Assembly: GCF_000003815.2 (NCBI RefSeq)
Contig: NC_049985.1
Span: 25,464,212 to 25,528,211 of the forward strand
Origin: Branchiostoma floridae
Lineage: Eukaryota > Chordata > Leptocardii > Amphioxiformes > Branchiostomatidae
Length of the DNA: 64,000 nt
Direction of reading: 5' to 3'
Below the pieces are notes generated by a model. The model was not told the DNA's origin and did no database searches. It saw only the letters and a list, made by a program, of their open reading frames with translations. The position numbers and the translations under genes were made by a program. This document shows, piece by piece, positions 1,751 through 32,500 of the stretch (its first letter is position 1; each line of letters starts with the position of its first letter).

Positions 1751-1754
1751 ACAT

Positions 1755-1931
1755 TAGTTCACCTATATCCGTAGGGTAACCTATATCCGTTGTATACAAA
1801 AATAGGGTATTTGGGGATCGTTAAGTCACAGTGCAACATTTGAAACCCACGTCGTTGACCTGAAATCTTTAAATACACAGGGGTTTTTTTAAACAACGAA
1901 TCTAGGTTACCCCGCGGATTAAGGTGAACTA
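1755..1931. mobile_element. Palindromic MITE, TAGTTCACC ends (copy 1)
   Basis: The left end TAGTTCACCTATATCCG and the AACCTATATCCGTTG that follows return in inverse orientation near 1900-1931, ending GGTGAACTA. A second near-complete copy is at 2514-2719, with an inner palindrome around AAGTCGACAGACGG. Half copies lie near 2226-2262, 2378-2415 and 3075-3112. All cluster around the first visible protease exon, one starting about 10 bp past its splice donor. No transposase is present, so they are non-autonomous. Confidence 0.75.
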
Positions 1932-2080
1932 GCGTTACATTTTTATAGAGTTGATGAGTGGCTATCCATGTAGGAAAAAGATACTGTTTTTGCTGGTTCT
2001 TCTACTTCTTTCTTCTCCTTCTTCTGTCATTTTTGGTGACGCCTCAGTGGCGAGCCTAATGGTACAGTATTGTTTGCAAG

Positions 2081-7216: not shown

Positions 7217-7255
7217 AGTCTTGACAGTACACAATTCTGCGCCACCACAGAGCAA

Positions 7256-7261
7256 AATAAA
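7256..7261 (+). promoter_or_regulatory. Polyadenylation signal AATAAA of the protease gene
   Basis: AATAAA lies 40 bp after the stop codon, a normal position for a short animal 3' UTR. Confidence 0.6.
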
Positions 7262-7604
7262 GTGAAGCATCTTTAAAAGTTTGTCTGAGTACTACATTGA
7301 GTGAAAAAAGAAAGAAACAATTTTTTTAAACTTCTCATATATTACAGTACCAAACGACTTGATGTACAGTATTTCAATCTTTGTACAAGAATATCTACAA
7401 CCGTACAAGTAGTATTAACATTAAAAATAACTGTCAAGACTTTTATGTGGCGTGATGAGCTATATACAGTATATACCACCAGGTTTTACATTGTGTTTGT
7501 ATGCAATGTACACATCTATATGCAATATACACATTTCCACATGCACTGATTGCCTGTCACTTTGAGTTTTACTTGTACAGATCTCTATATACATAAGGTG
7601 CCCC

Positions 7605-8272
7605 TTTATGGTTCCGGTTCGGAGTTTTTTTTAGGATTTGGGGCCGATTTGACTGTCTCTGAGAAAAGCACTAGCGCTTCTCAAAACATCGTTTTTCGGA
7701 TAATTCAATGTTTCCGATAGAAAAGGGTGTGTTGTCGCTGACCGACAGACTCATTTGCCATTTTCTGTAGAAATGTTATTTTTGGTAAAAAACCATCAAA
7801 AATATAAGCTTTTCATCCAAAAATTGCTAATTTGGGGCCATTTTTTACAGGCCGCTACACGGAAAAAATGAATTTTCCTGGGATAATGACTGATATGGCA
7901 AGGAAGGTCAAGACTTCTTCTGTATACTGAGTAAAAAGGAAAAAAAGTTATCCGATACGTTTTCCGCGAGCTCTGATGGCGCTAAAACACCCAAAACGCA
8001 CATAGAACGCACGATCTGGGTAATCAGGCGACGAAACGCTTTACCGCTATCGCGCGCACTAATACCAGGAAGTGTTCGCCGAACAATCAAATCTCCGACA
8101 CCATAAAACCCTACGAACAACAAGCATTTGGAGAAGTATAAAAGATTATAGACTTCTAAAGCGATAGCTGAAAAATCTAGAGCCAAATCTATGGAGACAA
8201 CCTCTGATTTGCGTCTTATTCTTAGGGACTATTTAGATATTGGACACTTGAAATTCCGAACCGGAACCATAA
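7605..8272. mobile_element. Terminal-inverted-repeat element with 8-bp target duplication
   Basis: The ends are TTTATGGTTCCGGTTCGGA and, inverted, TCCGAACCGGAACCATAA. Both are flanked by GGTGCCCC (7597-7604 and 8273-8280), an 8-bp duplication as made by hAT-type transposases. The target resembles the GGTGCCCC of the 54-bp units that follow, so it probably inserted into that array. The minus-strand reading frame 7908-8186 shows no family I recognise. Confidence 0.75.
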
Positions 8273-8575
8273 GGTGCCCCCTCGTGAACCCTTCCCATGG
8301 TGCATCAGGAGGCCACCTGTAACCGAGGTGCCCCCTCGTGTACCCTTCCCATGGTACATCAGGAGGCCACCTGTAACCGTGCTGCCCCCTCGTGTACCCT
8401 TCCCATGGTGCATCAGGAGGCCACCTGTAACCGAGGTGCCCCCTGGTGTACCCTTCCCATGGTGCATCAGGAGGCCACCTGTAACCGAGGTGCCCCCTCG
8501 TGTACCCTTCCCATGGTGCATCAGGAGGCCACCTGTAACCGAGGTGCCCCCTCGTGTACCCTTCCCATGGTGCCC
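8273..8575. repeat. 54-bp tandem array derived from the TUBE1 last exon
   Basis: Six CTTCCCATGG landmarks lie 54 bp apart (8291, 8345, 8399, 8453, 8507, 8561). On the minus strand each unit repeats the end of the TUBE1 reading frame (TMGRVHEGAPRLQVAS and stop). Only the first unit is used as coding end; the others lie in the presumed 3' UTR. Because 54 is a multiple of three, spurious long frames open on both strands. Confidence 0.9.
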
Positions 8576-11500
8576 TCCAGCTGCTCATACTCCTTGACCA
8601 GGCCTGTGAGCGACTCCAGAGCCTGGGAGAACTGTGCTGCCTCCATGCCATCCACATTGGTGTAGTGGTGGAGATGGGCCTGAAATGTACATTTACATGT
8701 AATCAGATACATTACATACAAGAGGTACAAATGTAACAGGGAGCACTTTTCTGAATGGTCAAATGGTGGAAAGGTGCTCCTATTTTTTAAAACTGTTGAA
8801 GAAGTGGGTTTATATCCACTGGGTCTAGGGGACTGTATTGTGAGTTGTAGGGTCGTGTTCAGGATGTCTGGCCTTGGAGGTTCTCAGTTCCAATCCTGTG
8901 AAGCTTCATGTACCAAACTTCACAGGAATTTTACAGGACTGTCCTCCCTACACCCAGGTGTAAAAATAGGTACCTGACTCATGAAGTTGGGGAGGTTAAG
9001 TAAGTGGAAGGATACCCAACACCGTGCCCTAGCATTTACCCTTTGGCCTTAAATAAATGGCCATAGGGCTGCCTTTACCTTCCTACGTGGCGACAGAATC
9101 TACTGTACTGTACACTACATCACTCATTGCAACAAGAAAAGTATCAACATCTTTCCTTTTCTAACACTGTAAAGGCAGAAATGTTTGCAGTGGTTTTATG
9201 TTCACAGTATTTGTGAACACTTCACTGTAAGGGTCTGACTCCTCACCTTCCTCTTGTATAGTTTGTGGAACCTGTCCCTGAGGTTGGTGAAAGTGTGCCT
9301 GATGCAGGAGTTGTTAGCCAGGGCCAGCAGGGAGTAGGGTTGGCCTACAGGGGGTACAGAACACAGACCTGTCTTCCAGCCTTCCTGGTTCCAATGGATG
9401 AACTGTAGAGAAGGCTTCAACCTGAAAAATACATAAACACATTGACTACGATTGTAGAAAACAGTTCACAATTGGTCCTGTGACTCAAGAACTTTTAACT
9501 ACTACACCTTACATGGAATGTCTAATTGTAACGTCACTGTGATACTGTAAATGCAGAAACTTTCCTGGTGGTTTAATGTTCGCGGTTTTCACGGTGGCCA
9601 CTTCACCGCAAACTTAAAACCACAGCGAACATTTTCCAATGGCAGTAAGAGACTACAGTGCAAGGTGCTACGGCAAACTTAAAACCACTGTGAAAAGTTT
9701 TTTCCCGCTACCACAAAATTAAATCCCTGCAAACTTGAATAGATTTACAGTACTTGCTGTGATGTAACTAGAATATTAATTAGGTTTATCAATTATGCCA
9801 CCAAAAAATCAAGACCACAACACCTCGAGGTCAAGAGATACAAAACACAAAACCAGAAGTTCAGCTGCAGTACCAAGGTCACACAACAGTAGCCCAAATT
9901 GACTTTGATCTTTGTCTTCCCAACACATAGCCACATACCAAATGTCATTTAATACAATCCATCCTGAGGTTCTAGAGTTATGCTGATCACAAATATCTCG
10001 AAACACACACACACACACACACAAACGCCAAAAAATATACTGGGTCCCCTATTTTTCGTGGCGGTAACAATAACAGTTTGCTTTGAACAACTGGTAACAG
10101 CTCATTCTAAATTACTTCAAGCAGGATGCTACCTAACACCCACAGGCATCTGAGATCAAATGGCAAGCCAATTAAGTTAGCACGTCTTTGAGATGCAAAC
10201 TGAATCCTGCAAGACGAGCGTATGATGTCACTGTTGCCTCGGTAACATCAGAAGAGGCCATAGTTGCTATGACAACAGCTTCACCTTGAGGCCCAGCCAG
10301 CGCTGAGTCTCATAATTACCTTCCTGTTGTTATGCTTGTGGTGTGTTAAATTGATGAGAATATTCTATCATTGTAGCAGTTTTTCTAATGTATCTCTTGT
10401 CCAGGACAATTGGTGGCAAGTAGCTTTTCATGTCAAGACAAGGTGGGACAGGTTTGAGCCCCTTAACATTTAATTTTGGAACTGCAGGGGCATTTTTCTC
10501 AAAACATTCCAAGCTGGATAACTGAAGAAAGGAAAAACAGATTTCCATCAGTTTGGGCATGTAGATAGCTTTGGCAAAGACATAGACAAGGATATGCATA
10601 GTATGCAAATGAGGACTTCATTTGCATAATTTGCAGCTCATTTTGAACTATTTCAAGCAAGATGGTACATAACACCAACAGGTGGCGCAGAGATCAAATG
10701 GCAAGCCAATTAAGTTAGCACGTCTTTGAGATGTTAGCACGTCTTTGAGATGCAAACTAGATCCTGCAAGAGAAGCGTATGATGTCACTGTTGCCTCGGT
10801 AACATCAGAAGAGGCCGTGGTTGCTATGACAACAGCTTCACCTTGAGGCCCTGCCAGTGCTGAGTCTCTCCTCATAATTACCTTCCTGTTGTTGTGCTCG
10901 TGGTGTGTTAAATTTGGGCGTGCAGCCGGCTACAGCAGCTCAGGCCGTGCCTATCTTATACCTTAACCGTATTCATCAACAGGTTAGTGTGAAACTCTTT
11001 ATTTCAACATGTTATATAGAAGCATGGTGTACACATGTCATTTCTTTTAGTGTGCAACAGATGGGCAAAGGTCTTACTATATGGTTTGGTTATTGTTTTG
11101 GGTGCCATTTCTTTCTTTCCATTTCTTAACACCGGCAAATGTTCAGATCAAAGACAGGTATATGTCTCCTTGTCTAACAATTAGTCCTTTTCTTATGTAT
11201 CTAATATTTTCACCACTAGTGCACACCTTCCAATTAATAACTAGAGGGCTAAGCTATCAGGTATCATTTTTGGCTTACATGGAGTCTTGGAGTAATGAAC
11301 ATATGGAACATCACTCCTGCTAAGGAAAAGAGTAGGCCTGAAGTGCCCAGGTTCTTGTTGTTGTTCTTCCTTCCTTTCATCTATCATGGGTGTTTTTAGT
11401 AATGCTTGGTTCTGCATGCATGCTTGCATATGGTTGCCTATTACTGCAGTATGGAGGACTCTGTATTTGTGTGTATGTGTGTGTGTGTATTTGTGTTTGT

Positions 11501-14500
11501 GTGTGCATGTTTGTGTGTGCGCGTGCATGTGTGTGCGTTCGCATTTGTGTGTATGTATTGCGTGAATGTGTGTTTCCCTACACAATTCTTGAAAGGATGG
11601 CAATGAGCTCTAAAAATGAATCGCTGAAAAAGAAAATTATGTTTAAAACATTTTTCCAAGGACAAGGGTTTAGTCGCTTTAACAAAGCTTATGTGTAGCA
11701 AACCAGCTGCATATACTTTAAGCGGCGGCTGGTTATATTATATCTAACCACTTTATCACACCTGAGCCCTGTATATCTATATCAAAGCGTTGTTTTAAGT
11801 GATGTATTATCAATGTAGCGTATCCAATCCGATTAAAATCCCAATGGTTTTGCTCACTACAGTAGAGTGTTCTTTTCCTTTTTCGTTCAAAGTTGCTTAA
11901 AAAGATGTTTTAGTATTACTGACAATGATCTTTATTGCATATTCCTGCCTAACATGGGCTAAATGCATTGAGTTAGAAAAAATAAGCATACGTGAAACAG
12001 GTTACATCTTATATCATCTAATTCTAAAATCTACAGAGTCTCTTCTCTCTTTTTGAAACTTGTGTAAACAAATTACAAATCTTTTCCAGTACTAAGTTAA
12101 CTTTATGCATTGAAAAATCAAGCAACCACATCATGTCCCAGGGCTCTAGCCAGCTCGAATTTTTTTTTCGTCAGCCAATTCCCATATTGTCGCGAAAACA
12201 CTCTTCCAGGAGTTAGAAAGACTGAACTGAGACCTTGAAAAACAGGTTTTTAATGAGATTTTCGTATGCTAAAGAGCGCCGACACACTTTGTCAACAATA
12301 ATAACAATAGCAAAACAAACAGTGTGTGGCTTTTACGGCCGTGGACGGCGTCCCCAAGCCACCTGTAGCTTCCACCAAGGATTTTTGTACGTCAAGGTTG
12401 ACGGATTGGTTTTAGAATTTTTCCGTCACACACAGCAAATTTCCGTCAATTGACGGAAAAACAGACGCTGGCTAGAGCCCTGTTATGTCCATGCACAAAC
12501 AGACCGACACACACACAGGCTTAACTCTTCAAACAATGCCACATCATAAGGATTAGCTGACCATGATCGACTTTTCCCAATGCTGTTTTAGCACAGATAT
12601 TTTACTAAAAAACATGTTCCCATTTTTTCTAGCTCATAATTGTCAACAATGAGTGAGGACCAGAAGAAGATGTCCCCTCCTTCTGACACCGTCCCATCTG
12701 AGGATACCGTCCAGCTCAACCAAGGGGAGAAAAAGGTGCCATTGTTCGTGAGATTCAGCCCGTGGGAAACGCTCAAACACATCCTGGCCGTCCCGTTCTA
12801 CATCACCATACTTTTCTGTGCCAGCTACTACCCGGCAAGTACTGTAAAATTAAATGCATTTAAGTTCGCTGAGACTTAATTTCGCAGTAGCGGGAAAATG
12901 GACTTTTCACGGTGGATTTAATTACGCAATAGCACTATGCACTGAAGTCTCTTACTGTTTGCGGTGGTTTTAAATTCGCGGTGAAGCGGCCACCGCAAAA
13001 ACCACGAACATTAATCCACCGTGACAGTTTCTGCATTTACAATTATTAACAGTACCTCTTGTCACTTTTGCACCTACAGTCAAACCTGTATTAGCGGCCA
13101 CCTTTGCATGGCGACCACCTGGCCATGATTGCGGTCACTTTTTGTTGGTCCCTTGGATTTATTTTCCCATTGACCTATTATAAGCATTGAGAAAAAGTCT
13201 ATAGCGGCCACCTCTCCAAAGCGGCCACGGCCACGGCCACACGATTTCCAGTCCCGTATATACAGGAACACTGCATGCAGCGGCCGTATGTCACCCTGCG
13301 CCGGGTTTAAAATCGTAGTTTGCGAGGACTTGGAGTTCCCAACAGGGTTATTTTGGCAGTAGCAGAACGTACGCTGCCTTGAACCTAGAGCGCACGTCCT
13401 TTTCGGTAGATTTGACTTTGGCAGCGTCAGTTGAATTTTGAGACAATCAAGACAATGTTACTTGGTGAGAAAGATCAGTGGGTACTGAAATCATGTGGAA
13501 CTTATTGCTTGGGTTCTATAGTGGGTACATTTCTGAAGTCCCTTGAGTGGCCGCTATAGACAGGTTTGACTGTACTAGTAGTCTTTCAAAGAAAAACAGA
13601 AATTATATGTTGTCAATTTTGGTGCTATTCAGTGTTCTCAGCAGGATTTTTTCACAGCATAGGGGCATCTATTCTTAGTGCAAAAAAAGTCATGTGGTAA
13701 GCCATGCAAGCATGAACATTGTAAGGTCTTGGAATATCCTCCCCCTGAAATTTATTAGATCTACAACCCTCAGAAACACTATTGTTTGAGGCCCAAAATT
13801 TAGTCAAATAAAGACACCATTTTTTACCTTTGGAAAATAACAGAAAAGTCCCTTTGTTGGCTGAATCAAAGCACAGAGGCCCAAATCACAGCATCAAAGG
13901 AAATCAAATCACAGCGAGGGGCGCGCGGTTTACACGAGGCAAAAAAATAACTTGTCCTAAAAATGTCCTACAATATTTGACAGTGTGGCACCTGAAAAGG
14001 CCTGACAAGAACACTGCTATTGTTTTGCAAAATGCTGAATCAGGGTTGTAGCTAGCACCCGTCCTTCCATCCTTTGACAAAACTTTGCAGCTGGGGGCGG
14101 AAGACAATTTTGCCCATTCCGTCCTCTGTGAGCAAAATCTAATCCTCAAAATGCAGGAAATAGTGTTTCAGAGGGTCTAAAAAATTTTTGGGGGAGCATG
14201 CCCCTGGACCCCCCTAGGAACAATGCACCAAAGCCATTCAAAATCGAAGGGACAGAAATGATTTCTGGCTGGCTCCAACCCTGTGCTGAATCATTGTTTT
14301 CTGTCCCTTCAGTATCTTCAGCACTGCGGTATCTGGTTTGGGGCCCTGTGCGGTCTCATCACCACCATCGCCAACCTTGTGTACCAGATTTATGCGCTGT
14401 GGAAGTTCAAGGACTTCCACCTCCCAGTCGTCCAGAATTCCAACAAAGAAGACTAGGGAGGGCCGCGTTAGACATCAGAAACGCCCAGGCACAAATTAAA

Positions 14501-17500
14501 AGGCTAATCTCCAAGCAGATGCTACAATGGCACAAGATAGTACCAAACTGGCCAAAGAGTGTAGTAGTCAGTCAAAAGGTGTCGTGTAGGTTGCCATGTG
14601 TCGTGTAGGTTGCCATGTAGCGAAACACATTCCTAAGCCGGCTTCACTCCTCTGTCAGCTTTTGATGCTAATAATTCTTATGCTACCGTGGGATCTGCTT
14701 GGAGATTATCAAAAGGCGACATTGTCAAATGAAAACACGCCATTAACAGGTTCCTAGAACCCAAAGTAGAATTCTTTCCGTAACACATAGAAGTTATCTT
14801 AGACTATTGTTTGTCAGATAGAAAACAGATATATTATGTAGTGTTTTTCAAGATAGTTTTAAAAGATATGTCAGGAGGTTTTTAACCATCTATTTAACAT
14901 ATTTTTGTGAAAGAAAGAAGAAAACTTAAGATTGGAAAATCATGTAGTATCTAACAAAGACAGGGTAAACATGAGTGGCTGGTAACATTAGGATTCGTAG
15001 TGTATGTGTAACACTTGTGATATATTGCAACATCAGTGTCGATGCCTTTGTAACTGTCTTTAAGGTAAACAAGTGACCGTAGGTAACGTACTCTGTAACA
15101 TAGTTATAGTTTATGTCGGTTGTGTTGTTTTCTGTGGTGTATGCATGGTGTTTATATCGCATACAGAACACATCACATTGACTTATACCTCCAAAAGCTT
15201 AGTAAACTTAATACCTAACGGAACTATTACTGCCAAATGTAAACACAGCAAAATCAGCCTCTCAACTCAACAGCAAAATCAGCCTCTCAAAAGAACGACA
15301 CCAAATGAAAATAGCCACACACCTTCACAGTACATACATGAGAGCCACACCATCATATAAACAGCCGCAATAATGACGGCTTTGAACAACTGACAACATG
15401 ATGTGCACAAAACATGCAAATCACACAACATCTGCTTGACATTATTCAATTACCGCAAGGCCTTGACAACGCAGAACTGGACCAATAAACCGAAAGACGT
15501 ACATTTTGTATAGCCTCCATAGCAGGCTCTCTATGGGCTTTTTTGGCACTTTTGCTGGCATTTTCTTTTTGTACTGGGTCGCTGATTGCTGGCCTCTCTC
15601 ATAGCCGCCCATTTTAGAGCCTGCATGGAAACGGCGGTACAAAGTCATATTATAAAACGATTAGGGCAATTAACAAGGAGGTGCGAATTCCCTGCCTGCC
15701 GTGGACGGCTAATAAACTGCACGCATCTCCGCCGGACGCGGACAGAGGCGCGTGTCGCCCGAGTTGTAAAATGCTTGCTCACAGAGTTGTGAATTATTCC
15801 TAACGCATGTGTTAATAGGGCAGATGACAGGCTAATCCTTTTCTGATATGACTTTGTACCGCCATTTCCATGCAGGCTCTAAAATGGACGGCTATGAGAG
15901 AGGCCAGCAATCAGCAACCCAGTACAAAAAGAAAATGCCAGCCAAAGTGCCAAAAAAGCCCATAGAGAGCCTGCTATGGAGGCTACATTTTGTAGGGGTG
16001 ATTTCGGAAATTATTACATACTATTAGATTAATATAAAAACAGCTACCGCGAAAAAAAACAAAAACATGCATCATCTCTGTGCAGCGCAGAGGACCTGCC
16101 AAACTATATACAAATGCGACAACAAGAACATACAGATACAGATGAGAACGCGAGTTACAATTTGACAAAACTAAACAGAGCAATAATTAGCCTACATGTA
16201 CAATGTATACTTAGTGTCCACAATTCGTTAATCAAGGGTCAGGGTTGGACAAGTCCACTAGCCCTATTGTCCAGGGCAGGTGAAAGTTCTGATCGGGCAA
16301 GTGCATGTCCTACCCCACTTGCCCAATTGGGCAAGTAAGATTTTTCCATTGAGCAAGATTTTGATATACTTGTCACTTTTTACAGTCATGACATCAAGCA
16401 GTGGTCAACATACTTAGAAAAATAGAGGCAATAATAAGAATACCATTGCTGGATGTGAAAATGCAAATAAAAGTGACATTTGAATTTTGGGCAAGAGAAT
16501 AATTGCTTCATGCAAGTAAATTTTTTATGTCCTTGTCCGATAGGACAAGTAAATTTTAGAAAACTTGTTCAACCCAGAAGGGTATTCTTTTTATTGCTTG
16601 GACAAGCATAATGTGATGTGAACTGTTGTTTAAGTTTTAACGGTGTGGTTATAGCTTATACACAGATGTAGTGGAAAACAGTAAAAATGTGCAGTTAAAC
16701 TGTCGTTTTTTAGGTTGGCAGACAAGTTTACTTCAGTGCTGATGAGTATGAAAATACTTATACGAAAGTGCAATAAGTTAAGTATGACTGTTCGTAGATA
16801 TGGTCTCTTATATGAATAAAGTACAGTACAGGATTTGTGAAATACGTTTGCTGATCTGCATTTTTTTGTTTTCTTTATGTTAGACATCAGGGTTTAACTG
16901 AATCAGATTTGACTAAATTTATCGTGAAGGAGACATAATACTTCACTCCTTCAGTTTAGTGTTTCATCATATAGTTATACACAGTCTGGTGCAATGGTCG
17001 AATGGGTTGAGTGTTTGCCTTGCATTTGGTAGGTCTGAGTACAATTCCTGGCCAAGTCATACCAAGTGATTTGGTAAGCATTTTCTGCTTACCACTGAGC
17101 ACAAATGAGGAAGAGTAATGGGAGTTAAACACACATCACTAACCCCTGCTGTAGTAGCTTAGACTTAGGCCACAGACATGGAGATGGGTGCCACCCCTAA
17201 ATATCTATTACAGATGCACTTGTAAGCAACTTTCACTTTAAGACAATATACAGGGTAATGAACCTACAAAATCCAGTCCGAGTCCACAACTCAGTTCTGG
17301 AAGAGTTGGGGACTTCTAAACATCATAAAAAGAAGGAAGTTCCACTACTTCAGTCACAATCCATGAGCCCAACCCATACCAAAACCCTGTCATGACATGA
17401 GGTGACAGTCCATCTCAGAGGTAATAAAAACATTAATAAAGCACCCAGCGGTGCTCCTGCCCACTGATTGAGGAGCTATCACCATCCCAGCGACTCCTTT

Positions 17501-20500
17501 ATCCGAACCTTTTGAGACCAAGGAGGTTGAAAAAGGAATTAGGTATTCTTTTTCAACCTCCTTGTTGAGACATACAATGTACTACAATGTAAATACAACC
17601 AGACCTGCCTTCACCAAATGCACCCTTATCACTCGTACTTGCATACTCAACCTATGGAGCTTTAGCACAAAAACTGTCTAAGACTTATGTTCATCACCTC
17701 CAGTAAGACTGTAAGAGACTGTAATCGTGGCCATTTCAACAATGTTTTTATTGCAATACTTGTTTAAAGAGGGAAACAATGGCACTGTGGTCCCATACCC
17801 TGACCATGTGACCCCTTACTCTGGAGAACAGATCCTCTATCAAATTCTGATTGACCAGGGAAGCTATTGGGTGACATTTGGCCAGTTTTGTTCTGTTTGA
17901 AGAACAGGCAAAAATCAACGCCCGCACGGATGTCATCCACAGAATCAAGTCAGTGTGGCCTAACCGGAAGCACATTGTTTTCCTATGCCTAATAATATAT
18001 TGTAATGGAATATGCAAACGTTGTGTACGTTGGGTGCACCATCTCACAGTCAAACACCCTCAAAGCCGTACAGAAAAGAGCCATGAAGATCATCCACAGA
18101 AACAGGGATGCCTCCTGCACGACTACCCCCCTGCCAACTCTCCAGTCCAGGCGCGAAGACGCAGTAGTAACTCTCCTCAACCAGATGCGCTCCAGTGACC
18201 ATCCACTACACTACATGGTTACAGGTGACAGGCAATAGCGGACTGGGCGTACTCTGGGGAACAGCAACCACCTCAAACTGCTGGCCTGTCGTACTGAGAG
18301 ACTAAGAAAATCATTTCTATACAAGACAACAGCCCTGTACAACAAGACTCTGTAGACATTTCATTTCAGTAACAAGTGCCTCTTTTGTTTTTATATAAGA
18401 CTGTAACGCTGACTTGTATTATATGTAACTCTACTTTAAAATGAATCTTTTATGAGAAATCTTCTATGATAAAACTCTCAGGCGAACATACGTCCACTAT
18501 GTAATTTGGTTTGAAATTTCAGTCTTGTTTTAAACTGCGAAAACCAAATAAAGCTCTCATCTCAATTGGGGGAAAAAAAAAGCAGTGAAGTCACCTGTCA
18601 ATGTTCCTCCTGATGTCTGACACTGCCACGTTCCCCCGCACCATTAGTGCACAGGCCAGGTACAGGCTGTGTCTGGGGTCCGCACTGATCAGCTGGTACT
18701 CCTTTGTAAAGGCATCCGAGAACATCTGGTCTAGCCTGTGTAGGAAGATGGATAAGATAAAACTATTAAATGTTCATGGTAGTTTCATTTTACAGGTGGT
18801 TTTCACAGTGACCTCTTGTAAAACCATGATGCCACAAAAACTTTCTTTCCCAATTTCTACAGCAAAATGAAGTCCCCTGAAATAAATGTGTCAGTCTGCA
18901 TGGATGTTATGACCTCCTTGGGTACTGTAAAATGAATTTCTACCACATGTGTAAGGTCAAACGTACAGACTGAGGGGCAGTGAGCCTTGTTGACATGAGC
19001 TTCACGATAGGATTTTAACTACGGTGGGAGTCTGATATTCCACAAAATAGATTCCTTTGTAGCAAAATTGACCTGTCCATTGTTTTGAGCTTTGCCCTTT
19101 TACAAGTTTTCAGACAATCTGGTCCAGGTTCATGTCAAAAACTGGGCCTGATCCGCTGATCTGAACCATACCTGTACTTGAATTTTCTGTACCAGTACCC
19201 ACCCCTATTTTCCAACCTCGAAAAAAGCATGACAAAGATTAGGTCCCCTTTCCACTAGACGACGATCACACTGCGCTCTCACTGTGACCTAATTGACATG
19301 TGTAACCTTTGCTTTCACACTGGGTATATCATACAAAATGTAAAAGTGTGACTGAGAAGACAACAAAACACACAGAAAGTTTTAAAAGATTTTTTTCTTT
19401 TCTATATAATTCGTTGAGGGATAAGTCACATTTTATTAGGTGGCAGAGAGAGCGTGGCAAGATTGCCATCCTAGTGGAAAGTAGTCTAAGCGATTGGTGC
19501 AAATTAAAATATAGCTAGAATTGCTCAAAATATGGTAAAAGCATGAAACTTGGTATGATGAGTCCTGAGTATGTACTAAATATTTTCAAGGGTGGAGCCA
19601 ATTCAAATCAAAATGCATGTTTCTTAGCAACGGTTGCTAGGTAACCAATATTCCCAGCAAATAGCTACACTATTGACGTCTGCACTGTCATAATTCAAGT
19701 TACAATTCTAAATTTAAAAGGGGTTATTAGCGACAGCAAATCTTACTTCCTGAGAGGTAGGCTGACGTCTGCCAGGTGGTACAGAGGACTGAGGCTGGAC
19801 ACCAGGTAGTGCAGCTTGGGGAACGGCACCAGGTTCATGGTGATCTCGTTCAAGTCCACGTTCAGGGCACCCTCAAACCTGGAGGAGCTGGATTGGAGGG
19901 AAGGTACAGATCATAAGTACACAATGTAGATCTCAAATGTTCTACTGTAATGTACTGTGTATACAATGCCCACCTCTTGTCTGGTGCAAAAGAATAAACA
20001 ACATTACTATAGTCCCTGATCTCTGTCCTGGCTTTTGGACGTGCTTGCGCCATCTGATCGTAGCTTCAGGGTGGTTGAGAACTGACAAGAGGGTAAGACA
20101 ACAAAATGGAGGTTCTACCGAGATGAAAAATTCTGGGAATAACTCAGCAGATGACACGATCACAGCTTGTGAAGTGTGACAGAAGCGACAGTGAGAGAAA
20201 GGACGTCCACAGGGCCAACATTTTGCGCGGAAACTGTCACATGACGAGATTGTTGTTATAGTTTGTTGTTGATCCATTGTTGTTGACAATATGCGCTGTT
20301 ATGTCACCTGTATGTGCCCCTGAAAAATGCACTTAACACAACTTTCCTCTCTTCACTCAGATGGAGATGTAGGGCCGTCTCAGATAGGACATTAATTGGA
20401 GGACAGTAAAGAAACCACCACACTTATTGAAAACAGTGTAGTGGTCCTTCCTGATGTGAGAGGATACCTTACAGTCTGGTCTTAGGTTGACATCTTTAAA

Positions 20501-23500
20501 AGGTGATGATATGAAATGAAATGATAATGACACCAATCTTACCTTGTCAAGTTCAGCAGAAGGTTGGCTACGATGTTGTTCATCTTGTCAAACGGCTTCT
20601 CCTGACCTTTGATCCCGCCCGTGTCAGAGGTCACGGTGCTGCCACCTTTGACCTTGCTTGTCGAGGAGATCTTGCTAGTTTTACTGGCTGCCTGGTTCAC
20701 CATGTTAAAGATATCAACAAGGGACTGTGGAAACAAAAGGGAAATACATGATTGTACAATTATTGTATATGAGATCGAGTGGCGTGATTGGCAGCGTGTT
20801 TGGTTTGGGATCTACAACTCCCGGGTTCAAACTCGGCTGTGTCACGGATCTTGTGCCCTTGAGAAAGGCACTTAACACAGCTTTCCCCACTTCACTCAGG
20901 TGAAAATGAGTATAGTTACAGCTAGGGATGTCCCCGGATATATTAAATAGTGGTTCCGTGTCTGTATGTGATGGATTCTTTAACGTACTTACACCCCATG
21001 CAAGTACGTTAAAGAATTCACCACACCTTTCAAAAAAGAGTAGGGCAGGGGCATGCCCCCAGGTGTGCGATGGTGCGAATTCTTCAGTGAGTAGGTGGTT
21101 CACTTCAAATCACTCGGATGGTGGCCTGGTAAACCTCCATCTTATATCGGTCATACGGTCATCTACATGACTGTACATCATTCAGCCAGACTCACTAAAT
21201 GAAGATTCGTGTCTCTTTCCTCATTGAAAACCACAGTTCACTTTCAATTGTCAAGTTGTTCAGGTTCATGTACCTAAACTTCTGTTACCAATCGATTACT
21301 GTTTAAGTACCTGTACCTAATGTCACATTTAGATACACATCCCTAATAATTATAGACTTTACTGTGTACTTGCCTGGTTCTCTATGGGCAGCACACAGTC
21401 AGCGTGTTTAGTGAGCTGGTGCATGGCCAGAACACTGTTGTATGGGGAGGTGATACAAACTTTACTGTGTACTTGTACTTGTACTTGCCTGGTTCTCTAT
21501 GGGCAGCACACAGTCAGCATGTTCAGTGAGCTGGTGCATGGCCAGAACACTGTTGTATGGGGAGGTGATACAAACTTTACTGTGTACTTGCCTGGTTCTC
21601 TATAGGCAGCACACAGTCAGCATGTTCAGTGAGCTGGTGCATGGCCAGAACACTGTTGTATGGGGAGGTGATACAAACTTTACTATACATGTGTACTTGC
21701 CTGGTTCTCTATGGGCAGCACACAGTCAGCATGTTCAGTAAGCTGGTGCATGGCCAGAACACTGTTGTATGGGGAGGTGATACAAACTTTACTGTACATG
21801 TGTACTTGCCTGGTTCTCTATGGGCAGCACACAGTCAGCATGTTCAGTGAGCTGGTGCATGGCCAGAACACTGTTGTATGGGGAGGTGATACAAACTTTA
21901 CTGTACATGTGTACTTGCCTGGTTCTCTATGGGCAGCACACAGTCAGCATGTTCAGTGAGCTGGTGCATGGCCAGCACACTGTTGTACGGGGAGGTGATG
22001 ACATCATCTTCTGCTGATGGGTACACAGCCGTGGTGAATCTGCAGAAGGTAAAATGTAAAGAACATAGAAAAGTCACATTTCCAACAGGGGTGTCTAATA
22101 TTGATTTGATCCTCACGGAAATCCGATGATCCTCTACTAAGAAACACACAATCCATAGAAATTTTATGCAGTCCAAGAAATTAGTAAGGACCATTTTTTT
22201 CTTAGTAGTGGATCATATTTTTTCCTTAAGGAATCACATGTTTTTTAGTAATAGATTGTATGAATGCAATAAGGGTCGTATGTTTTCTGTAAGGATGTTT
22301 AAACTTGGACACCCCTGTGCAAGAGCATATAATCATGTTAGCCTTCCCATGGTCTAGCATAACAAACTGCTGCTCAGTTTTTCTTTATCTCAAACACCTT
22401 TGGGAATATGGTGACCAGCCCCTCCAGACCTGTCCTGCCACTCGCTACATTATGTAACCATGGGTGTCTGTAAAACCTCTAGTAACCATGGCCTTTAGCT
22501 TCTTTGCTCAGAGAAGAAGTGGAAGAAGAAACTGAGCAACAAAATTTTCCCTTTCATAAAGCCATAGTTGAATTATTTCAATACACTTCATAATATAACA
22601 TTGTATGATATTGCGTGACCTTCTGATATTTGACTGTATTTACCTACAAGAGTAAAAGCCCCAAAACGAAAAGCAAAACGAAGCTATCAATTCATTTAGT
22701 TTTTCAAACTATTAGTACACTAATCTCCTCATAATTTACACTGGGAAGAATAAGACCAGGAAGCCTTCCAAGAGAGTGAAAAATTGATACGATTCACAAA
22801 CACAGAAGACTGTTTGAGGGTGACCTTTGCTCTGTACTATCACCTTCCCTCACCTGTACACTTCAGGATACTCCTCTTCAAGAAGGTTCAATATGAAGGT
22901 CCCCACACCTGAGCCAGTACCTGTCACAAGGAGGAAAAATTAACCTGTGACTTAACAAAATCATTGCCATCATATAAAGATTATAAATTTTGAAATTTGT
23001 AAAATAACACCTCACTCACTCTGGACCCATGACTGTAGAGGTCGTAGGGGCTTCACGACAGCCACATACTGTCCTTACCCCCTAAAGTGTCTGTACCCCT
23101 TGTAAAATCCATCTCTTTGTTGTCCCTACTCCCTGTACATGATCATGTCTGTACTCTTTTTAGTGTCCATAACCCCCATAATGTCCTAAAAACTGTGCTG
23201 TCTGACCCTTTGCAGTGTCCATACCCAATGTTTGTACCCCCAGTAGTGTCCTTATCCTGAGCTATGTCTGTATCCCAAGTACGGTCAATACCCCAAGTAG
23301 CGTCTGTACGCCCAGCTGTGTATAGCCAAATGGACCACTGTTTTGTTCATTCACAAGTTTTCACAGATACATGTAATCAGGTCCAGGTTCAGGTTCGGAC
23401 CTAAACCTGATCCTTTGGACCTGGACCGGACATGAATTTTGCGAACCGGTACCCACCCCTTTTCACAGACTGAGATAGTTTGAAAGGTTGAGTCCTCACC

Positions 23501-26500
23501 TCCCCCCATGGAGTGCAGAGTAAAGAAACACTGCAGACAGTCACACATCTCTGCTGTTCTCCTGATGGCTTCAGAGATCTGCTCTCTGTACATACTACCG
23601 TACATCATGTGGCCCACAGCCCTGCAATATCAACAACACAGACATACAATGTACAAATTTAGTACCAGTAGAATTACACATGAATGTTATGTCAACATGT
23701 CAACAGGGCTCGAAACTCATTTTTTGGATCAGGAGCACTGGTGCACCCAACCTAAAAAAATTGGGTGCACCAAAAAAATATTAAGGTGCACCACATTAAA
23801 ATAATTCAAAAGTAGAATGTCAGGAAAAACCTAATTTTGATGAATACAAATTTCAGACATTTTACGATCTTTCTAACACCTGGATGTTAGGAATATGGTG
23901 TACAAGTAGTAGTAGTCCACATCGATATCTTTACACAAAAATATTTGTGTGCACCAGTGCACCCACAAAAAAAAATTGGGTGCACAGCTCCAATTTCAGG
24001 TGCACCAATGTGCACATGAAGTATTTTGAGCCCTGGTCAATCATGTAATATCTATAAATTGTTCATAAAAGAGTTTCATCAGGGGTATAAATCACCATGA
24101 TATCAGTTTTGTTATCATCATGCCAGCCTTACTTTTCTTCTCCACAAACATTTCGACAACCTGTCTGCTGTCTTTGTCAATGCAAAGTACATTTTATAAA
24201 CTGATAGTGATAGAAAACCTGACTGTCTTGTTGTGAAGTACAAATAAGAAGCTCCATCTTAAGATTGGAATTCCGTTTTTCCCATTTTGAAATGTGCTAA
24301 TATTTTCAATATAAAAGCACTTGGTGCAAAGTCTTTACATATGATTGACAAGTATGATGTACAGTTGTGAAATATGATAATAACTTTCATGAATATTCAT
24401 TTTGAAAATTTTCTTCCTGCAGGAATTCCTGCAGGAATTCCTGCAGGAAGCGTTTTTCCTGCAGGAATTCCTGCAGGAAGCGTTTTTCCTGCAGGAATGC
24501 TGCAGGCATTCCTGCAGAAATTCCTGCAGGAGAAAGGTAAATTCCTGCAGGAAGAATGTTTCCTGCAGGAATTTCTGCAGGAATGGCCTTGACAATGACA
24601 GGAAGCATTCTTTATGCATTTAATTTTGTTTTGAAACTGTTAAACAATGCATTAGATTTCATTAGATGTTTCAGACTTGACTTTAACTATGTATATAAAA
24701 CAGATATATAATGGAGGCATTTTTTATTGTTTTGTTTTCCTAGTTTTATTGACTGTTGCTGGAGATGCCTGGCATTAGAAATAACTGACCTATGAATGAA
24801 CTTCACTTCAAGAAAATGCATTTCCTTCAGTGGCTACTCATATTTTTCAGAAGTACAGAAGCTTGGGCATGGTTACTTCTTTCATTTTTTTCTTTAATTC
24901 TTTAACATCACCACTTAGGGTTTATTAGTATCTAAGCCAATTTGATTGTACATGTAGGTGCAAGTCAGGAACATAAACACAAAATTCATAAATTTCATGA
25001 CAGGCCTAAGCTTCCCTTAAAAGTATAAATTCAATTATTGTAAATTGCACATGTACTGTAAGGGTATCCCTAATAGGATAATCATTGGAGTCCATAAGAA
25101 AAGTACTGTACAATGAAAGTACAGTACTTTTAGTTACATGTTGTGTAAAAACCTTTATCCTATTATCAGTGCCAACCTGATGAAATTATTTTCGGAACTT
25201 CCAGTAACTATTTACTGAATTCTAAACTGTAGTAAATCAAATGATACATTCAGTTGGTGGAAAAGTAGATGACATGAACCGCCTTGTTTGCCATGCTGAT
25301 AGCTGGTGTTTGGGTTATAGAAACCAACCACTGGCGGCTTTATCTCATGATGCATCCCTCAGGGTAAAACATTGATCCTTTATTAGCATATAGCCAGGTG
25401 GCATTCACCAGTCATATTTTATGTTGGTTATGACACTGTAACACAATATTAGAAGTGTCCCGAGCCGGGTGCGTGGACACCTAGAAATTCATTAAACACT
25501 GGTGCTAAATGAATCTTATTTATTAGGTTTTTGATACCTACTGGACAGCTGTGTTTAATGAAGTTCTAAGTGCCCAATAGAAAATAATAATCAACCGTCA
25601 CCAGATCAGATCAGATCACAGAACATTGATCAATGAGAACAACACCCTGTCCTCATCTGGAACTCTTTACATGCTCTAAAATCCTTGAGATTGGGACAAA
25701 GGCCTTTTTATCACAAGAGTGTGATATTATCACCTCCCCTCCCCTTTCTCACCTATCTTTAGAGAAGTCATTATATAATCTCCTTTGCACCTACATGAAG
25801 GTGTTTAAAGCCAGCAACAACAATGCGTGTATTGATTTATAATGACAGGTAATTAGAGACTGAAGTGAATGGTAGCTGCCTTTTATTCAGTGCCTCCACT
25901 GGTGTATGGAACAGGTCAGTATTTATATATAACACTGCATAGAATACTAAAGTTTACCCAAAGAGGTTTAACTACCTTGTAGATCACCAAGGAGTTTAGA
26001 ATTCTCTGATCTCACTGACCTAACCTAGGTTTTACAGCAACCTTGGAATAGATATAATTTTTTACTATTTGCCTTTCAATTGGTAATCTTTTACTCTTGT
26101 CTTGGCTACCTTAGGTCTCTTGTTTAAGCAAGGGGCTTTTATCTTGGTTTCAGACAAAAAGTTCCTGATGATGGGTTTGAAGGCTGATACTGATAGCCAG
26201 AATAAAGCTACCATTCCAGAATGGCTATCAGTATCACATCAAAATATATACCACAGGCCTTCTACTCTTCAAAATCAACCAGGAAAGTTTGCCAACACGG
26301 AGGGTATTGATATGTAAAATTTGGGGTCCTGGAGTATCTTGCAAATACAAGCAATTTTTGTACTATAGAGCCAGGCGTTGAAAAGCAGAAAGGCCCACAA
26401 AATAACAACAAACTTTTTGATAACCAAACTTATTGATAACCTGGGCTTTATCTGGTCCAAAGAACCATTATCTTTTTGACTATTAATAAACTTGAAGCCC

Positions 26501-29500
26501 GCTATGAAGCTGTTTACCAGTATGATTCATTATAAGCCAGAAGGCCGACATAACCGCATTCCTCTGGAACAAAGAATTTGCCAATACTGTAACTTGAATA
26601 AGATAGAGGATGAGTGTCACTTTATTGTTTAGTGTACTTTATACAACAACAAAAGAAACGTCCTCTTTGAAAATATACAAGATATGTTCCCTATTTCCAA
26701 TACTTGAATACCACGGAAAAAAATTCATATTTCTCATGCAATTAGATCAACCATACATTATTGATTCCATCTGTACTTATATTTATAACTGTTTTAAGAG
26801 GTGAGAAGAAGTTGAACTTGTAAATACTGAAATGTATTAGTATTTGTAGAGGTGATAAGATACCTTTTTTTTAATCAAAATTGTACATTATCACTAGCGC
26901 TACAATCTGTACTTAGCTTGTTTGAGCACAAATGTACAATCAAGGTCATTGATTCATTATATAGAAACAACAGGCAAAAGTTTGTTCCAGAGATTATTTG
27001 TAGTTTCCAAATCCTATTACATGGGCCTGTATATAAGGCACTCACTTTCCTCTTTTTGGTAATTATGCACATTGTTATGCAGGTTCAAAGGAGGTCAGTT
27101 ATTGTTAAGGCATGCTTCCCAATTAGCAAGTTGAATTAGCAAGTCCCACAGGGACTGTCCCAAAGCACTGGATGGAAAGATTCAGAACACCTCCCTGAGA
27201 TCAAGGAGGTTGCTTCTTGCTGAGATATTTCTATACTGAACTGCTTTTGAGCCAGATTAGAACTAGAAGAACTTCAAAATTGCAGAAACCTGAAAATTCA
27301 CTTCTGGGATAGATTACAGGATTCGAATGGTTAAACCAGATCGGCAAATTAAGGAGTAATAAAAGCTCCTTGATCTCACCAACTTGATCTGGCCCTCTTT
27401 CAACCTCCTTGATCTGGCTCAACACTTTTGTTTTGAACTGCCAACTAATGGAAATCTTAGAATTCAGAAAAATGGTAAATTAGGTAGTGCTCTGCATTGC
27501 ACTTTAGCCAACCTCTCACTTTACATAATATAATATAATATTATATACCATTGAAGCTTGGATCCAGGTTACATCCAGGTATGTGACGTCATACTTTGTG
27601 GCGTCACCCAGGAAAATAAAAGTTTTTAGATAATAATCTTATATTTAGGCCATGTTTCTGAATCAAAAATTTTTTTGAAACAGGATGTGTTTGAAGGCAC
27701 TTGAAAGGCCATGAAAGAATGTAGCTTCTTACGGTTGCATAAGATAGTATTGTCAGCCTGCAAGATCCGCTTGGAGATTCTGATCATGATAGACAAAGAA
27801 GCACAGTGCAAATGACACAGTAGGGTTCGGAGGACACCAACTGACTAGTCTAATTAGTCTGTTCTGTCAACTTTTAGCTTGAGTGGTAAATGTGTTGGGT
27901 TCATGAGCTGGCGGGCCCAGGTTAAAATCCTGGGAGCCAGGCACAAATTTTTCTCTTGTGTTTCAGAAGTGTAAGGTTGTGAAGGACGTTGCACTTCTGT
28001 GAGGGCCTGCATGCCTTTTTCCGTTAAGTGTTACGAGCCATTTTAATTTACCGTTAATCGTTACCGACCCACTCTAATTCACCGTTAAGCGTTATCGGTA
28101 TATTCTTCGTGAAGCGTATTGGTCGTTTTAATTCCACGTTAATCGTTACTTGTTATCCCGAATTCACCGTTAAGCATTACCAAGAAATTCTTCGTAACAA
28201 GTTATACCCACGAAGTCAAATGCCAGATAGAGCCCCTGAAAATGCAGGAAATGGTGTTTCAAAGGGTCCAGATTTCAAAATTTCTCCGAGCCTCCCGGCC
28301 GCTTCGGGTAAAAATATGTTGCGGAAGCGTCGCCCCTCCCCCTCCCAAAAAACCTTTTCACTCAAACAGATTTCAGTGTCCAACTTAGCATAGTTTCCGG
28401 CAAAATTTTCTCATCGAATGCAGAAAATGAGGTTTCTCCAGACCTCCCTTGCAACGGCTTGCGGCTTTGGTGCTCACGACGACCTGGCGAAAACATGTTT
28501 CAGGGGCGTTGGCCCAAAAAATTTTCTCTTTAATAAAATGTCATTTGATTTACCTTCGTTGGCTAGCAAAATTTGTCCTTCAAAATGCAGTAAATGGCGT
28601 TTCAGACGGTCCAGACTTTTAAATTTCCCCGGACTTGTCTGGCAATTTCTCGTGCCGTCCGAGCTTGAAATGGTAAAAATATGTCGGAGGCCGGAGGTCA
28701 ATTGCTACAACCATGTGTAATTTTGATGAAAATTTCATTATTCTGTCAGCAAAATTTGCCGGAAAATGCAGGAAATAGCATTTCAGAGGGCCATGATTTT
28801 AAAAAATTTCCCAGGGAGCATACCCCCTACCCCCATACGATGCGTTGCGCCTTCAGCAATAGTCCCCCCCAGCCTACAAGAAACTGCTGTTGCCGCCTCT
28901 GGTGGGAGCACTGACCCAGGGAAGCAAACGTCATAGACACAGCAGACATTGTCCCTGTTTAATGACCCCTCCTAGGGCAGCAGCAATACTATAGGGCCGG
29001 CCGCTAGGAGCGCGATTTTAGTCAGGCTAGTAGCCTCCTTCACCGGCCTCTCTGGGAAGCTTGGCGTTTTTTTTTCGGTGGGGGGGGGGGGGGTCGATTT
29101 TTAATCGGGAATATTGCGGGAAAGGAATATATGCCGGGAAAGGAATTTACACCGGAAAGCTTGTACGGGCTAAATGAGTTCGGCTCCTTCACCGGCCTCT
29201 CTGGGAAGCTTGGCGATTTTTTTTTTGGGGGGGGGGGGGGGGCGAAAAAAAAGCGAACNNNNNNNNNNNNNNNNNNNNNNNNNNNNNNNNNNNNNNNNNN
29301 NNNNNNNNNNNNNNNNNNNNNNNNNNNNNNNNNNNNNNNNNNNNNNNNNNNNNNNNNNNNNNNNNNNNNNNNNNNNNNNNNNNNNNNNNNNNNNNNNNNN
29401 NNNNNNNNNNNNNNNNNNNNNNNNNNNNNNNNNNNNNTTCAAACCAGCAGCCGGATCACAAATCCAGTACGCTACCGCTGGCGCACAAAAAGCTCAGAGC

Positions 29501-32500
29501 TCCTTAGCAAGGACGGTAGGAACTACTTGAACCCACTGTTACACTAGTGGGGCAAAAGCAAACTTTTTTTGGGTCTTCATCCTGCACCAGGTTTTTTGGG
29601 AAGCAGTCATAGTCACTGTGCAACAGTGGTATCAAACGACCAAATGACCAACTTTGAAAGTAGCCCCCCCAACTAGAAGCAGTCCAGCTTTTATTTTCGA
29701 GCACTCGGGTCTGATTTTACCATGGTCATTACTGACAGAAGGGGGTCTGATAGCGAGCAGTTGTTTAATGTAACGCAGCTTGAAGGGCAAATTGAGCAAG
29801 GCACAGCTGGATTGGAAATTAGGCACAGAGGTGCTGACTTCATTCCATGATGCCTATATTAAACCTCCTTGGTTTGAGCAGTCTATTTATTACCTTTAGT
29901 TATTATAAGTGGAGTCCACAATTACCATCAAATTTTCACAAAACTTCAAGAAAAATTATTCATAGTTTACCTTTAAATTGACAAAGACAACCTTGATTTA
30001 CCCTTTAGGTTTAACCATTTCATATTTAAATAGATTAGTGTAAAAGTGAACTTAGGTTTCTGAAATTCTGTAATTCTTCAGTCTGTAATTTCTTGTAATA
30101 GTGTACCCCCAAGTTCCAGGATTCTTTCTGAAGGCCTTAGGTCCTCAGCACTACAGGTAGCCAGGATGTTTGGACCTGGGGAATAATTAGTCCTTTGATA
30201 ATTGATAATTGATAATTGGACACCAGCATCCTTTGCATATCTATAGAACAATAGCTGACCTTACTTTGAACCCGCATTACAATAGCGCATACTTACTTGA
30301 ATTTTCAACAAGAGGAAGCAAGCCCCTGGCTTTCTTAGGCCCAATTTTAAACTTTATGAAATATTCTCTGGAACAAAAATTCAAGTGTTAATCTTATGAT
30401 GGTCAAAATATGACCAACCAGATCAAACAAATCTCAAGTTCCTGACCAAGGAGCTTTCATTCTTTGCCACGTTCAACTTGGTACTGCGTTTACAAGATAT
30501 CATTGCATGCATGGAAGGAGCATTCGAATAGAGCAGTTTTCATTTGATGAAAACACCCATGTGTGAACAGCCGTAATGGCTCTGTCGGCACAACTGTTGA
30601 ACATGTCAAGGGCAACTTGGACCCCATTCAAATGAAAAAATACAAGTGAGTTAAATGAGGAATCCGATTAAAGCTTTCTGTTGGATTAAAAAATGCGTTC
30701 ACATTTAATCGGATTAAACTCAAACTTGCGACCACGACCACCCCGAGTCGGGCACACGTCGTGCTTCCAAAATGTTGCCAGACTACCTCATAATTTTGAA
30801 GGATTTAGTGACATTGATATTATATATGATAACTGTTGAGAAATTGGCTGGCTTTTGATGCGTCGACAGTCAACAAGAACATGGCGCTTGTGAGGTCATA
30901 CAGGTTGAACTGGGGGTAGAAATGTTGCGCGGGGTGTGATTATACTCTACATTTAACTGTAGTACAAAATGTAAATGTATATGTTGAAAAAGTTGCATGA
31001 ATAGGAGAAACTACTACTAAAACGTTTGTTGCATACTTTTTTGCCGGTGTGTAGCACTCCTATCTTAGTGTCATTGATTTAGATATGAATTATAAGGCCA
31101 TTCCTGCAGAAATTCCTGCAGGAAACATTCTTCCTGCAGGAATTTACCTTTCTCCTGCAAGAATTTCTGCAGGAATGCCTGCAGCATTCCTGCAGGAAAA
31201 ACGCTTCCTGCAGGAATTCCTGCAGGAAAAACGCTTCCTGCAGGAATTCCTGCAGGAATTCCTGCAGGAAGAAAATTTTCAAAATGAATATTCATGAAAG
31301 TTATTATCATATTTCACAACTGTGCATCATACTTGTCAATCATATGTAAAGACTTTGCACCAAGTGCTTTTATATTGAAAATATTAGCACATTTCAAAAT
31401 GGGAAAAACGGAATTCCAATCTTAAGATGGAGCTTCTTAAATGTAACTTATAATTCCATGGACAATTTGTTCTCAAACTACTGTAGTTGCATTCTTCTTT
31501 CTGCTGTGTGACAAACAAATAGTTTTCGTACAATTGTTGTGTGATAGAATTATATTTAATATATATAAAACAGGAGAGAACTAACCAGTTATTCCCACAT
31601 CCGGAGACGTCAGTAATGAGCTGCCTGTGGTCGAACACATCCCCCAGGGGTCCCTTCAGGATCTCACTCACCACACCCTCCTCCATGTCTACCAGAACTG
31701 CCTGCAATGTCACAATTATCATGATGTAAGAAATGACGGGGGAAATGCTATAAAGGTAGAAATATTCGCAGTGGTTTTATGTTCATGGTTTTTGCAGTGA
31801 CCACTTCACCACAAAATTTTTTTCTGTCTTCTCCCCACCCAGGGTTGTAGCCAGCCTGAAATCATGTTCCAATATCCTCTCGATTTTGAATCCTATTAAG
31901 CCCCAAGATGCGAGACATCGCGCCTTCGCTCCCCTGAACATTTTAGAAATGTAGACCCTCTGAAATGCTATTTCCTGCATTTTTAGGTGTAAATTTTGCT
32001 GGTAGACCAAGCTGTTCAACGGCATCTGTTTGGTGAAAAATAACACAAGGGAGACAGTTTTTTTTATAACTTTACATAACGATTTTTGTCCGTAAGAGAG
32101 GATGGAATAGGCAATTTTTTTTCCGTATCCAGCTGCAAAATTCCGACAAAAGACGGAAGGACGGGTGCTGCTTACAACCCTGTCCCCACCTACCCCCTTG
32201 TCTGAGAGCTTTATTACTACTCTTTATTACTACATTATGCAGTATCATGATATGTTGCAGGCACCTTTCGACGTGAAGATTCATGAATACTACCGAATTG
32301 GATGCACAAGTTGAAAACAGACACGATCTTTGAAAATCGAAAACATATTCGCCAAGACTTAGTGCTACGAACCCAGAGGGTAGATACAATTACATCAGTG
32401 ACAGTTGATCATGTCAACAATAACGAAAGCATTCTTTCCATCTGTAGCACCTTTGCTAGAACACAAATGTACAATGTCTGGTAAGTCTCCGGAATTTCTA

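What the first reader, a model, noticed from the sequence alone, without database searches (positions are those of the whole stretch)
21371..22039. TUBE1 exon 8 fragment and its GC splice donor repeated six times
Six ~109-bp units each carry the last ~75 bp of a tubulin coding exon plus the GCAAGT donor, but no exon 5' part or acceptor. Coding sequence has become a VNTR next to the functional exon. The spliceosome sees an array of equivalent GC donors after one acceptor, so alternative donor choice, exon extension or copy-number polymorphism is possible. 109 is not a multiple of three, so read-through would break the frame.
Basis: partly seen in the sequence, partly recalled or inferred. Interest (0 to 1): 0.72.

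Follow-up and report, generated by a model that had tools for sequence, protein, structure and literature searches.

The report
Repeated splice-donor array in tubulin gene
The end of one tubulin exon, with its splice signal, is repeated six times in a row in what looks like a lancelet genome; this is a new example of a known lancelet oddity, and it offers a natural test of how a cell picks one splice site among identical ones.

Summary
The array is real. On the minus strand a 13-exon, 480-residue tubulin gene (epsilon-tubulin by recall) can be modelled, 43794..8521. Exon 8 (22039..21919) ends in a GC donor; its last 81 bp (27 codons), the donor and a short intron piece recur head to tail, giving six identical CAG|GCAAGT donors after one acceptor. 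Five copies lie in intron 8. Only the exon-nearest donor keeps the protein; the other five each add six codons and then an in-frame stop. Tandem repeats across exon-intron boundaries are published in lancelets as "mirages" (PMC3087553, PMC3902484), and the host genome size (513.4 Mb) fits Branchiostoma floridae, so this is a new member of a known kind. I add breadth in the same genome: such arrays at homology-supported exons of MTMR6-like (2 donors), PDE2A-like (3 acceptors), FSIP1-like (13 donors), TMEM87A-like (15 identical donors) and dynein (12) genes. In these six cases only the site nearest the exon core avoids an early stop; two further, ambiguous arrays stay open. I infer that splicing takes the pair giving the shortest exon. 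No RNA data or second haplotype was available: donor use and length polymorphism are untested.

The parts
8521..43794 (-). modelled TUBE1 gene: 13 coding exons, 480 residues, 11 of 12 introns GT-AG and intron 8 GC-AG
   Evidence: junctions chosen by me for a continuous conserved frame, no RNA; Pfam Tubulin and Tubulin_C; the name epsilon is recalled
21919..22039 (-). exon 8, 121 bp, the working copy; its last 81 bp (21999..21919) are unit 1 of the array
21356..21999 (-). tandem array, six units
21917..21918 (-). donor D1 (GC), the only one that keeps the protein
21810..21890 (-). unit 2, exonic look-alike; donor D2 at 21809
21701..21781 (-). unit 3, exonic look-alike; donor D3 at 21700
21592..21672 (-). 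unit 4, exonic look-alike; donor D4 at 21591
21489..21569 (-). unit 5, exonic look-alike; donor D5 at 21488
21374..21454 (-). unit 6, exonic look-alike with one amino-acid change (E to K); donor D6 at 21373
20725..21918 (-). intron 8 (GC-AG) when D1 is used; contains units 2-6
20543..20724 (-). exon 9, reads SLVDIF directly after ENQ of exon 8
8272..8573 (-). second array in the same gene: 54-bp units, 5.6 copies, repeating the last 16 codons plus the stop codon; only the first copy is coding

Best explanation
A lancelet-type 'mirage': a minisatellite born when a segment spanning the exon 8 / intron 8 boundary was duplicated in tandem, then expanded and partly homogenised to six units. The real exon is the first unit (it alone has the acceptor and the exon's first 40 bp); the other five sit in intron 8 as exon look-alikes. 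The gene works because the spliceosome pairs the single acceptor with the nearest donor (D1, shortest exon, exon definition) although all six donors are identical; transcripts spliced from D2-D6 carry an early stop and are expected to be destroyed by nonsense-mediated decay. Shown: anatomy, donor identity, frames and stops, similar arrays elsewhere in this genome. Inferred: D1 use in RNA, decay of the others, the duplication and expansion steps.
For: Six identical donors behind one acceptor; only D1 gives the 480-residue protein, D2-D6 stop at 221 residues; exon 9 continues the conserved frame from D1. Published lancelet mirages have this anatomy, on donor and acceptor sides, and RT-PCR suggested regular splicing (passages; also 9, 37). 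Same kind of array in this genome at an MTMR6-like donor and a PDE2A-like acceptor (2 of 24 arrays in an unselected sample) and at FSIP1-like, TMEM87A-like and dynein donors (3 of 9 places fetched from the list). In these six cases, counting TUBE1, moving one site away from the exon core brings an in-frame stop.
Against: No RNA evidence of any kind. Two further donor-motif arrays (L029, L032) stay long open in frame on read-through, so the stop rule does not hold for every such repeat, if those are mirages at all. FSIP1-like and dynein assignments rest on short exons just above the Pfam cut-offs (29.1 against 27; 27.8 against 25.8), with no PDB support for FSIP1.
Confidence: 0.8

Rival explanations
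1. Regulatory decoy array: the extra donors bind U1 snRNP and divert a share of transcripts to stop-containing forms, so that unit number sets TUBE1 output.
For: Donors D2-D6 are as strong as D1 by sequence, with the same upstream 81 bp except for scattered variants; each leads to a stop 88-524 nt before the end of the lengthened exon, a layout that would trigger nonsense-mediated decay.
Against: Published mirages did not disturb splicing in RT-PCR. Similar arrays occur in unrelated genes, and a second TUBE1 array repeats the stop codon region with no splice site involved, which fits indifferent repeat growth. No test of function was possible.
Confidence: 0.08
2. Assembly artefact: the repeat number is wrong or the repeats come from merged haplotypes.
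Against: Units differ by private substitutions and by 6-bp length steps in the intronic piece; the array lies in unbroken sequence with unique flanks and no N inside. Similar arrays occur at other loci of the same assembly.
Confidence: 0.05
3. The array is translated or makes extra cassette exons (exon extension, or mutually exclusive copies of exon 8).
For: The exonic part of units 2-6 keeps an open 27-codon frame, and each unit holds an AG after a weak pyrimidine stretch.
Against: No copy has the exon's acceptor or first 40 bp; read-through stops after six codons; the best AG in each unit has 67% pyrimidines in 18 nt against 83% at the real exon 9 acceptor.
Confidence: 0.03

Closest known systems
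'Mirage' minisatellites of amphioxus globin genes BflGb6 and BflGb9, and of Adh3 (PMC3087553, abstract and passages seen; the 2002 Adh paper is not held and is known here only through that citation)
   Same: [quoted passage not shown] authentic exon at the edge, copies in the intron; BflGb9 is on the donor side as here; units of 150-160 bp in globins, 109 bp here
   Different: Different gene; a GC donor rather than the usual GT; six donors identical from -3 to +6, whereas only many, not all, of the globin copies keep splice signals; no second haplotype or RNA here
Tandem repeats in lancelet PGBD5 (PMC3902484, passages seen)
   Same: 108-bp repeats whose first copy abuts a 5' splice site; repeat number differs between assemblies
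   Different: Three or six imperfect repeats there; six near-identical units here
Intron gain by tandem duplication, potato RdRp gene (PMC4974935, listing and start of abstract only)
   Same: Tandem duplication that includes coding sequence
   Different: There a new intron arose; here the copies lie inside an existing intron

Membership tests
amphioxus 'mirage' minisatellite | tandem direct repeats that span an exon-intron boundary | tested here: met
amphioxus 'mirage' minisatellite | authentic exon at one edge of the array, remaining copies in the intron | tested here: met
amphioxus 'mirage' minisatellite | units homogenised inside the cluster, edges left out | tested here: inconclusive
   U2-U5 differ by 0-2 sites, U1 and U6 by 2-3 from them; too few sites to be firm
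amphioxus 'mirage' minisatellite | does not disturb regular splicing | not testable with these tools
   no RNA data
amphioxus 'mirage' minisatellite | repeat number varies between haplotypes | not testable with these tools
   one haplotype in the assembly
amphioxus 'mirage' minisatellite | host is a lancelet | tested here: inconclusive
   genome of 513,431,437 bases in 431 contigs fits B. floridae by recall; no labelled sequence matched; the globin search did not complete
whole-exon tandem duplication (mutually exclusive exons) | each copy has its own acceptor and the full exon | tested here: not met
   acceptor and first 40 bp occur once
GC-AG intron | GC donor in otherwise strong consensus, AG acceptor, conserved frame across the junction | tested here: met
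   (AACCAG|GCAAGT ... CCACAG|TCC, ENQ|SLV); by sequence only

The most novel reading that the evidence does not exclude
In this genome exon-intron boundaries are recurrent seeds of minisatellites, so that hundreds or more genes carry 2-15 near-identical or identical splice donors (or acceptors) in a row, and splicing picks the exon-nearest one by a shortest-exon rule; the genome would be a ready-made series of splice-site competition experiments with equal sites at different numbers and spacings.
Probability: 0.3. Interest if true: 0.7.

Novelty: new member of a known kind. Interest (0 to 1): 0.45.

Why it matters
How the spliceosome chooses between equal donors is usually studied in built minigenes (recalled). 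Here nature offers arrays with 2, 6, 12, 13 and 15 near-identical or identical donors behind one acceptor, where only one choice yields protein. RNA-seq of one animal would show whether the nearest donor wins and how often errors occur, and length variation between animals would show how the error rate depends on number and spacing. Such arrays can also mislead gene annotation (PGBD5 in PMC3902484) and are a suggested route to new introns (PMC3087553).

Tried and rejected
Rejected: full exon duplication (no acceptor in the copies); usable exon extension (stops); a paralogue or processed copy elsewhere (one match reported in the genome). One search translated the units in a wrong frame (79-bp slices); its codon effects are replaced. 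Scripts failed and were mended.

Never answered: a globin search (PF00042) that would have tied this genome to the published mirages, and a second donor-triplet spacing (gaps 125-155). So the genome-wide excess rests on one spacing for GT donors and one for GC donors. One search is inflated by one dispersed ~51-bp repeat family: by my hand count, by eye, 43 of the 89 rows listed for C1 and all 11 listed for C2 belong to it; 46 rows at 10 places on C1 do not. Only the first 100 of 1,944 places were listed. I fetched 9 of these 10 places: exon ends supported by homology on the matched strand, 3 of 9 (L027, L028, L030); repeats open in frame, ambiguous, 2 of 9 (L029, L032); coding on the other strand, 2 of 9 (L033 by Pfam, L031 by open frame only); no coding seen, 2 of 9 (L034, L035). 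L027 and L028 were fetched first because the listed letters looked like exon ends. Of the 11 places with GC triplets I fetched two besides TUBE1 (L036, L037); neither gave a supported case. L014 (261-bp array with a donor-like motif) showed no coding sequence that I could recognise. Pfam with single exons of the PDE2A-like gene gave nothing above a cut-off; the joined exons matched PDE2A in the PDB. I did not test the other arrays of the sample by homology, so 2 of 24 is a lower bound.

Literature: ten searches. No genome-wide count of mirages appeared in their listings; most subscription papers are not held, and the 2002 Adh paper is not held (one search asked with a DOI recalled wrongly). 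PMC1877881 (passages) tests elements between competing 5' splice sites, not equal donors.

Full report
Observation. Tandem Repeats Finder reports 21356-21999, period 109, 5.9 copies, score 1122. Read on the minus strand, one acceptor (first exon base 22039) is followed by six donors CAG|GCAAGT at 21918, 21809, 21700, 21591, 21488 and 21373, spaced 109, 109, 109, 103 and 115. Each unit holds the last 81 bp of the exon, exactly 27 codons, and 18-30 bp that begin with the donor and end in AGTAAAGT, joined to the next unit by four more bases. The exon's first 40 bp and its acceptor are not repeated. Of the 13 exons of the gene, two (8 and 13) have partial copies elsewhere in the window at E up to 1e-3 and eleven do not.

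Gene. I modelled 13 coding exons from 43794 to 8521 with consistent phases and a 480-residue product; 11 of 12 introns are GT-AG and intron 8 is GC-AG. The junctions were chosen for a continuous conserved frame; there is no RNA support. Pfam finds Tubulin (E 1.2e-51) and Tubulin_C (E 7e-29). The best solved chains are beta-tubulins (60 of 173 shown). The name epsilon-tubulin is recalled from sequence features, not taken from a labelled hit.

Splicing consequence. I joined each donor in turn to exons 9-13. D1 gives the full protein. D2-D6 each read QASTHVQ* and stop at 221 residues, 88-524 nt before the end of the lengthened exon. D4 adds 327 nt, a multiple of three, and still stops. So the stop in the first intronic piece, not the frame of the unit, blocks read-through. 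The six donors are identical from -3 to +6, with a simple score of 8.77 (frequencies recalled from textbook values) against 3.95 for the next best GT or GC site up to exon 9. The exon would be 121, 230, 339, 448, 551 or 666 nt long.

Units. Six exonic sites vary among the six units; five are synonymous. If transitions fell evenly, five or more of six would have P 0.018; but two of these sites separate the coding unit from all others, and for the four sites private to intronic copies (three synonymous) P is 0.11. I draw no conclusion on selection. U2-U5 differ among themselves by 0-2 sites; U1 and U6, the edges, each differ from them by 2-3 (pairwise counts only).

Known class. [quoted passage not shown] floridae globin genes, called mirages after earlier work on Adh3: BflGb6 on the acceptor side (6 and 3 units in two haplotypes) and BflGb9 on the donor side, with RT-PCR suggesting regular splicing. 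Passages of PMC3902484 describe 108-bp repeats in lancelet PGBD5 whose first copy abuts a 5' splice site, with a count that differs between assemblies. The TUBE1 array has this anatomy.

Host. The window lies in a genome of 513,431,437 bases in 431 contigs. That this is the size of the B. floridae chromosome assembly is recalled. No labelled sequence was matched.

How common. Twenty fixed-spacing 10-kb stretches of contig C7 and five from C1-C5 hold 225,206 readable bases and 24 arrays with period of at least 20 and length of at least 100: 27 less the four in the window, plus one. At least two of 24 straddle boundaries of exons supported by homology. In L009 the last part of an MTMR6-like exon and its donor occur twice, 145 bp apart. 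In L012 the acceptor and first part of a PDE2A-like exon occur three times, 125 bp apart, the real exon last. Two in 225 kb scales to about 4,600 per genome with a Poisson range of about 550-16,500; this is a rough guess from two events.

Donor triplets. Three AGGTRAGT with gaps of 90-120 occur 1,944 times (900 forward, 1,044 reverse) against 72 (50 and 22) for the pattern read backwards; single AGGTRAGT and its reversal are about equally common in my sample (22 and 21). Much of the excess is one dispersed repeat family; on C1, 46 of 89 listed rows, at 10 places, lie outside it (hand count). Of the nine places fetched, three are exon ends supported by homology: FSIP1-like with 13 donors at exact 61-bp pitch (11 CAG|GTGAGT and 2 CAG|GTGAGC; Pfam E 6.9e-7, no PDB match), TMEM87A-like with 15 identical TAG|GTAAGT at exact 59-bp pitch (PDB E 2.1e-21), and a dynein AAA_7 exon with 12 donor motifs (Pfam E 2.2e-6). 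The other six are ambiguous, coding on the other strand, or without coding sequence seen. GC triplets occur 20 times at 11 places against 5 for the control, and 4 of the 20 are the TUBE1 array.

Rule. In the six homology-supported cases, counting TUBE1, using the next site outward from the exon core brings an in-frame stop: TUBE1, PDE2A-like, MTMR6-like, FSIP1-like, TMEM87A-like and dynein. For the five donor arrays the site that keeps the frame is the most upstream donor, for the one acceptor array the most downstream acceptor. Both are the choice that makes the exon shortest, not the intron shortest. If these genes are functional, which I assume from conserved coding sequence, exon definition predicts this and intron-length minimising does not. 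Against it, two ambiguous arrays (L029, L032) stay long open on read-through. Donor use is inferred, not observed.

Verdict. Confirmed observation; a new member of a known lancelet class, with added evidence that the class is common in this genome and reaches 15 identical donors. The regulatory reading stays open but unlikely.

Noticed in passing
8272-8573 (minus): Second array in TUBE1: 54-bp units, 5.6 copies, repeat the last 16 codons plus the stop codon of the gene; only the first copy is coding.
   Followed up: partly
L027 503-1333 (C1, about 23.136 Mb): FSIP1-like exon end followed by 12 further copies: 13 strong GT donors at exact 61-bp pitch.
   Followed up: partly
L028, minus strand (C1, about 29.309 Mb): TMEM87A-like exon end: 15 identical TAG|GTAAGT donors at exact 59-bp pitch.
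   Followed up: partly
L030 (C1, about 230 kb): Dynein AAA_7 exon with 12 donor motifs; the 43-bp unit seems to join two separate pieces of the exon (by eye).
   Followed up: partly
L012 1099-1475: Acceptor-side array in a PDE2A-like gene, three copies 125 bp apart, real exon last.
   Followed up: partly
L009 2617-2892 (minus): Donor-side duplication in an MTMR6-like gene, two copies 145 bp apart.
   Followed up: partly
L029 and L032: Donor-motif arrays with units of mostly 36 and 39 bp whose read-through stays long open in frame, so they may be coding repeats or exon-extending donors.
   Followed up: partly
G000 C1 and C2, for example C1:29239707-29241421: Dispersed ~51-bp tandem repeat family whose unit holds both donor-like and acceptor-like sequence, in places laid out as inverted arms; perhaps a foldback element (listing).
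   Followed up: no
24414-24531 and 31153-31270: Two palindromic TTCCTGCAGGAA arrays in inverted orientation near the two ends of TUBE1 intron 5; perhaps the ends of a mobile element.
   Followed up: no
37552-38781 (+): Open frame of a rhodopsin-family receptor (7tm_1, E 7.5e-33) inside TUBE1 intron 2 on the other strand.
   Followed up: no
47130-47546 (+): 57-bp array (a multiple of three) inside a 392-codon open frame, no Pfam match.
   Followed up: no
48575-48695 (+): 5S rRNA-like sequence, 51.4 bits against a cut-off of 38.
   Followed up: no
49230-49688 (+): Open frame with VWFQNRRSRWRARER, like a homeodomain recognition helix (recalled resemblance; no Pfam match at E 0.001).
   Followed up: no
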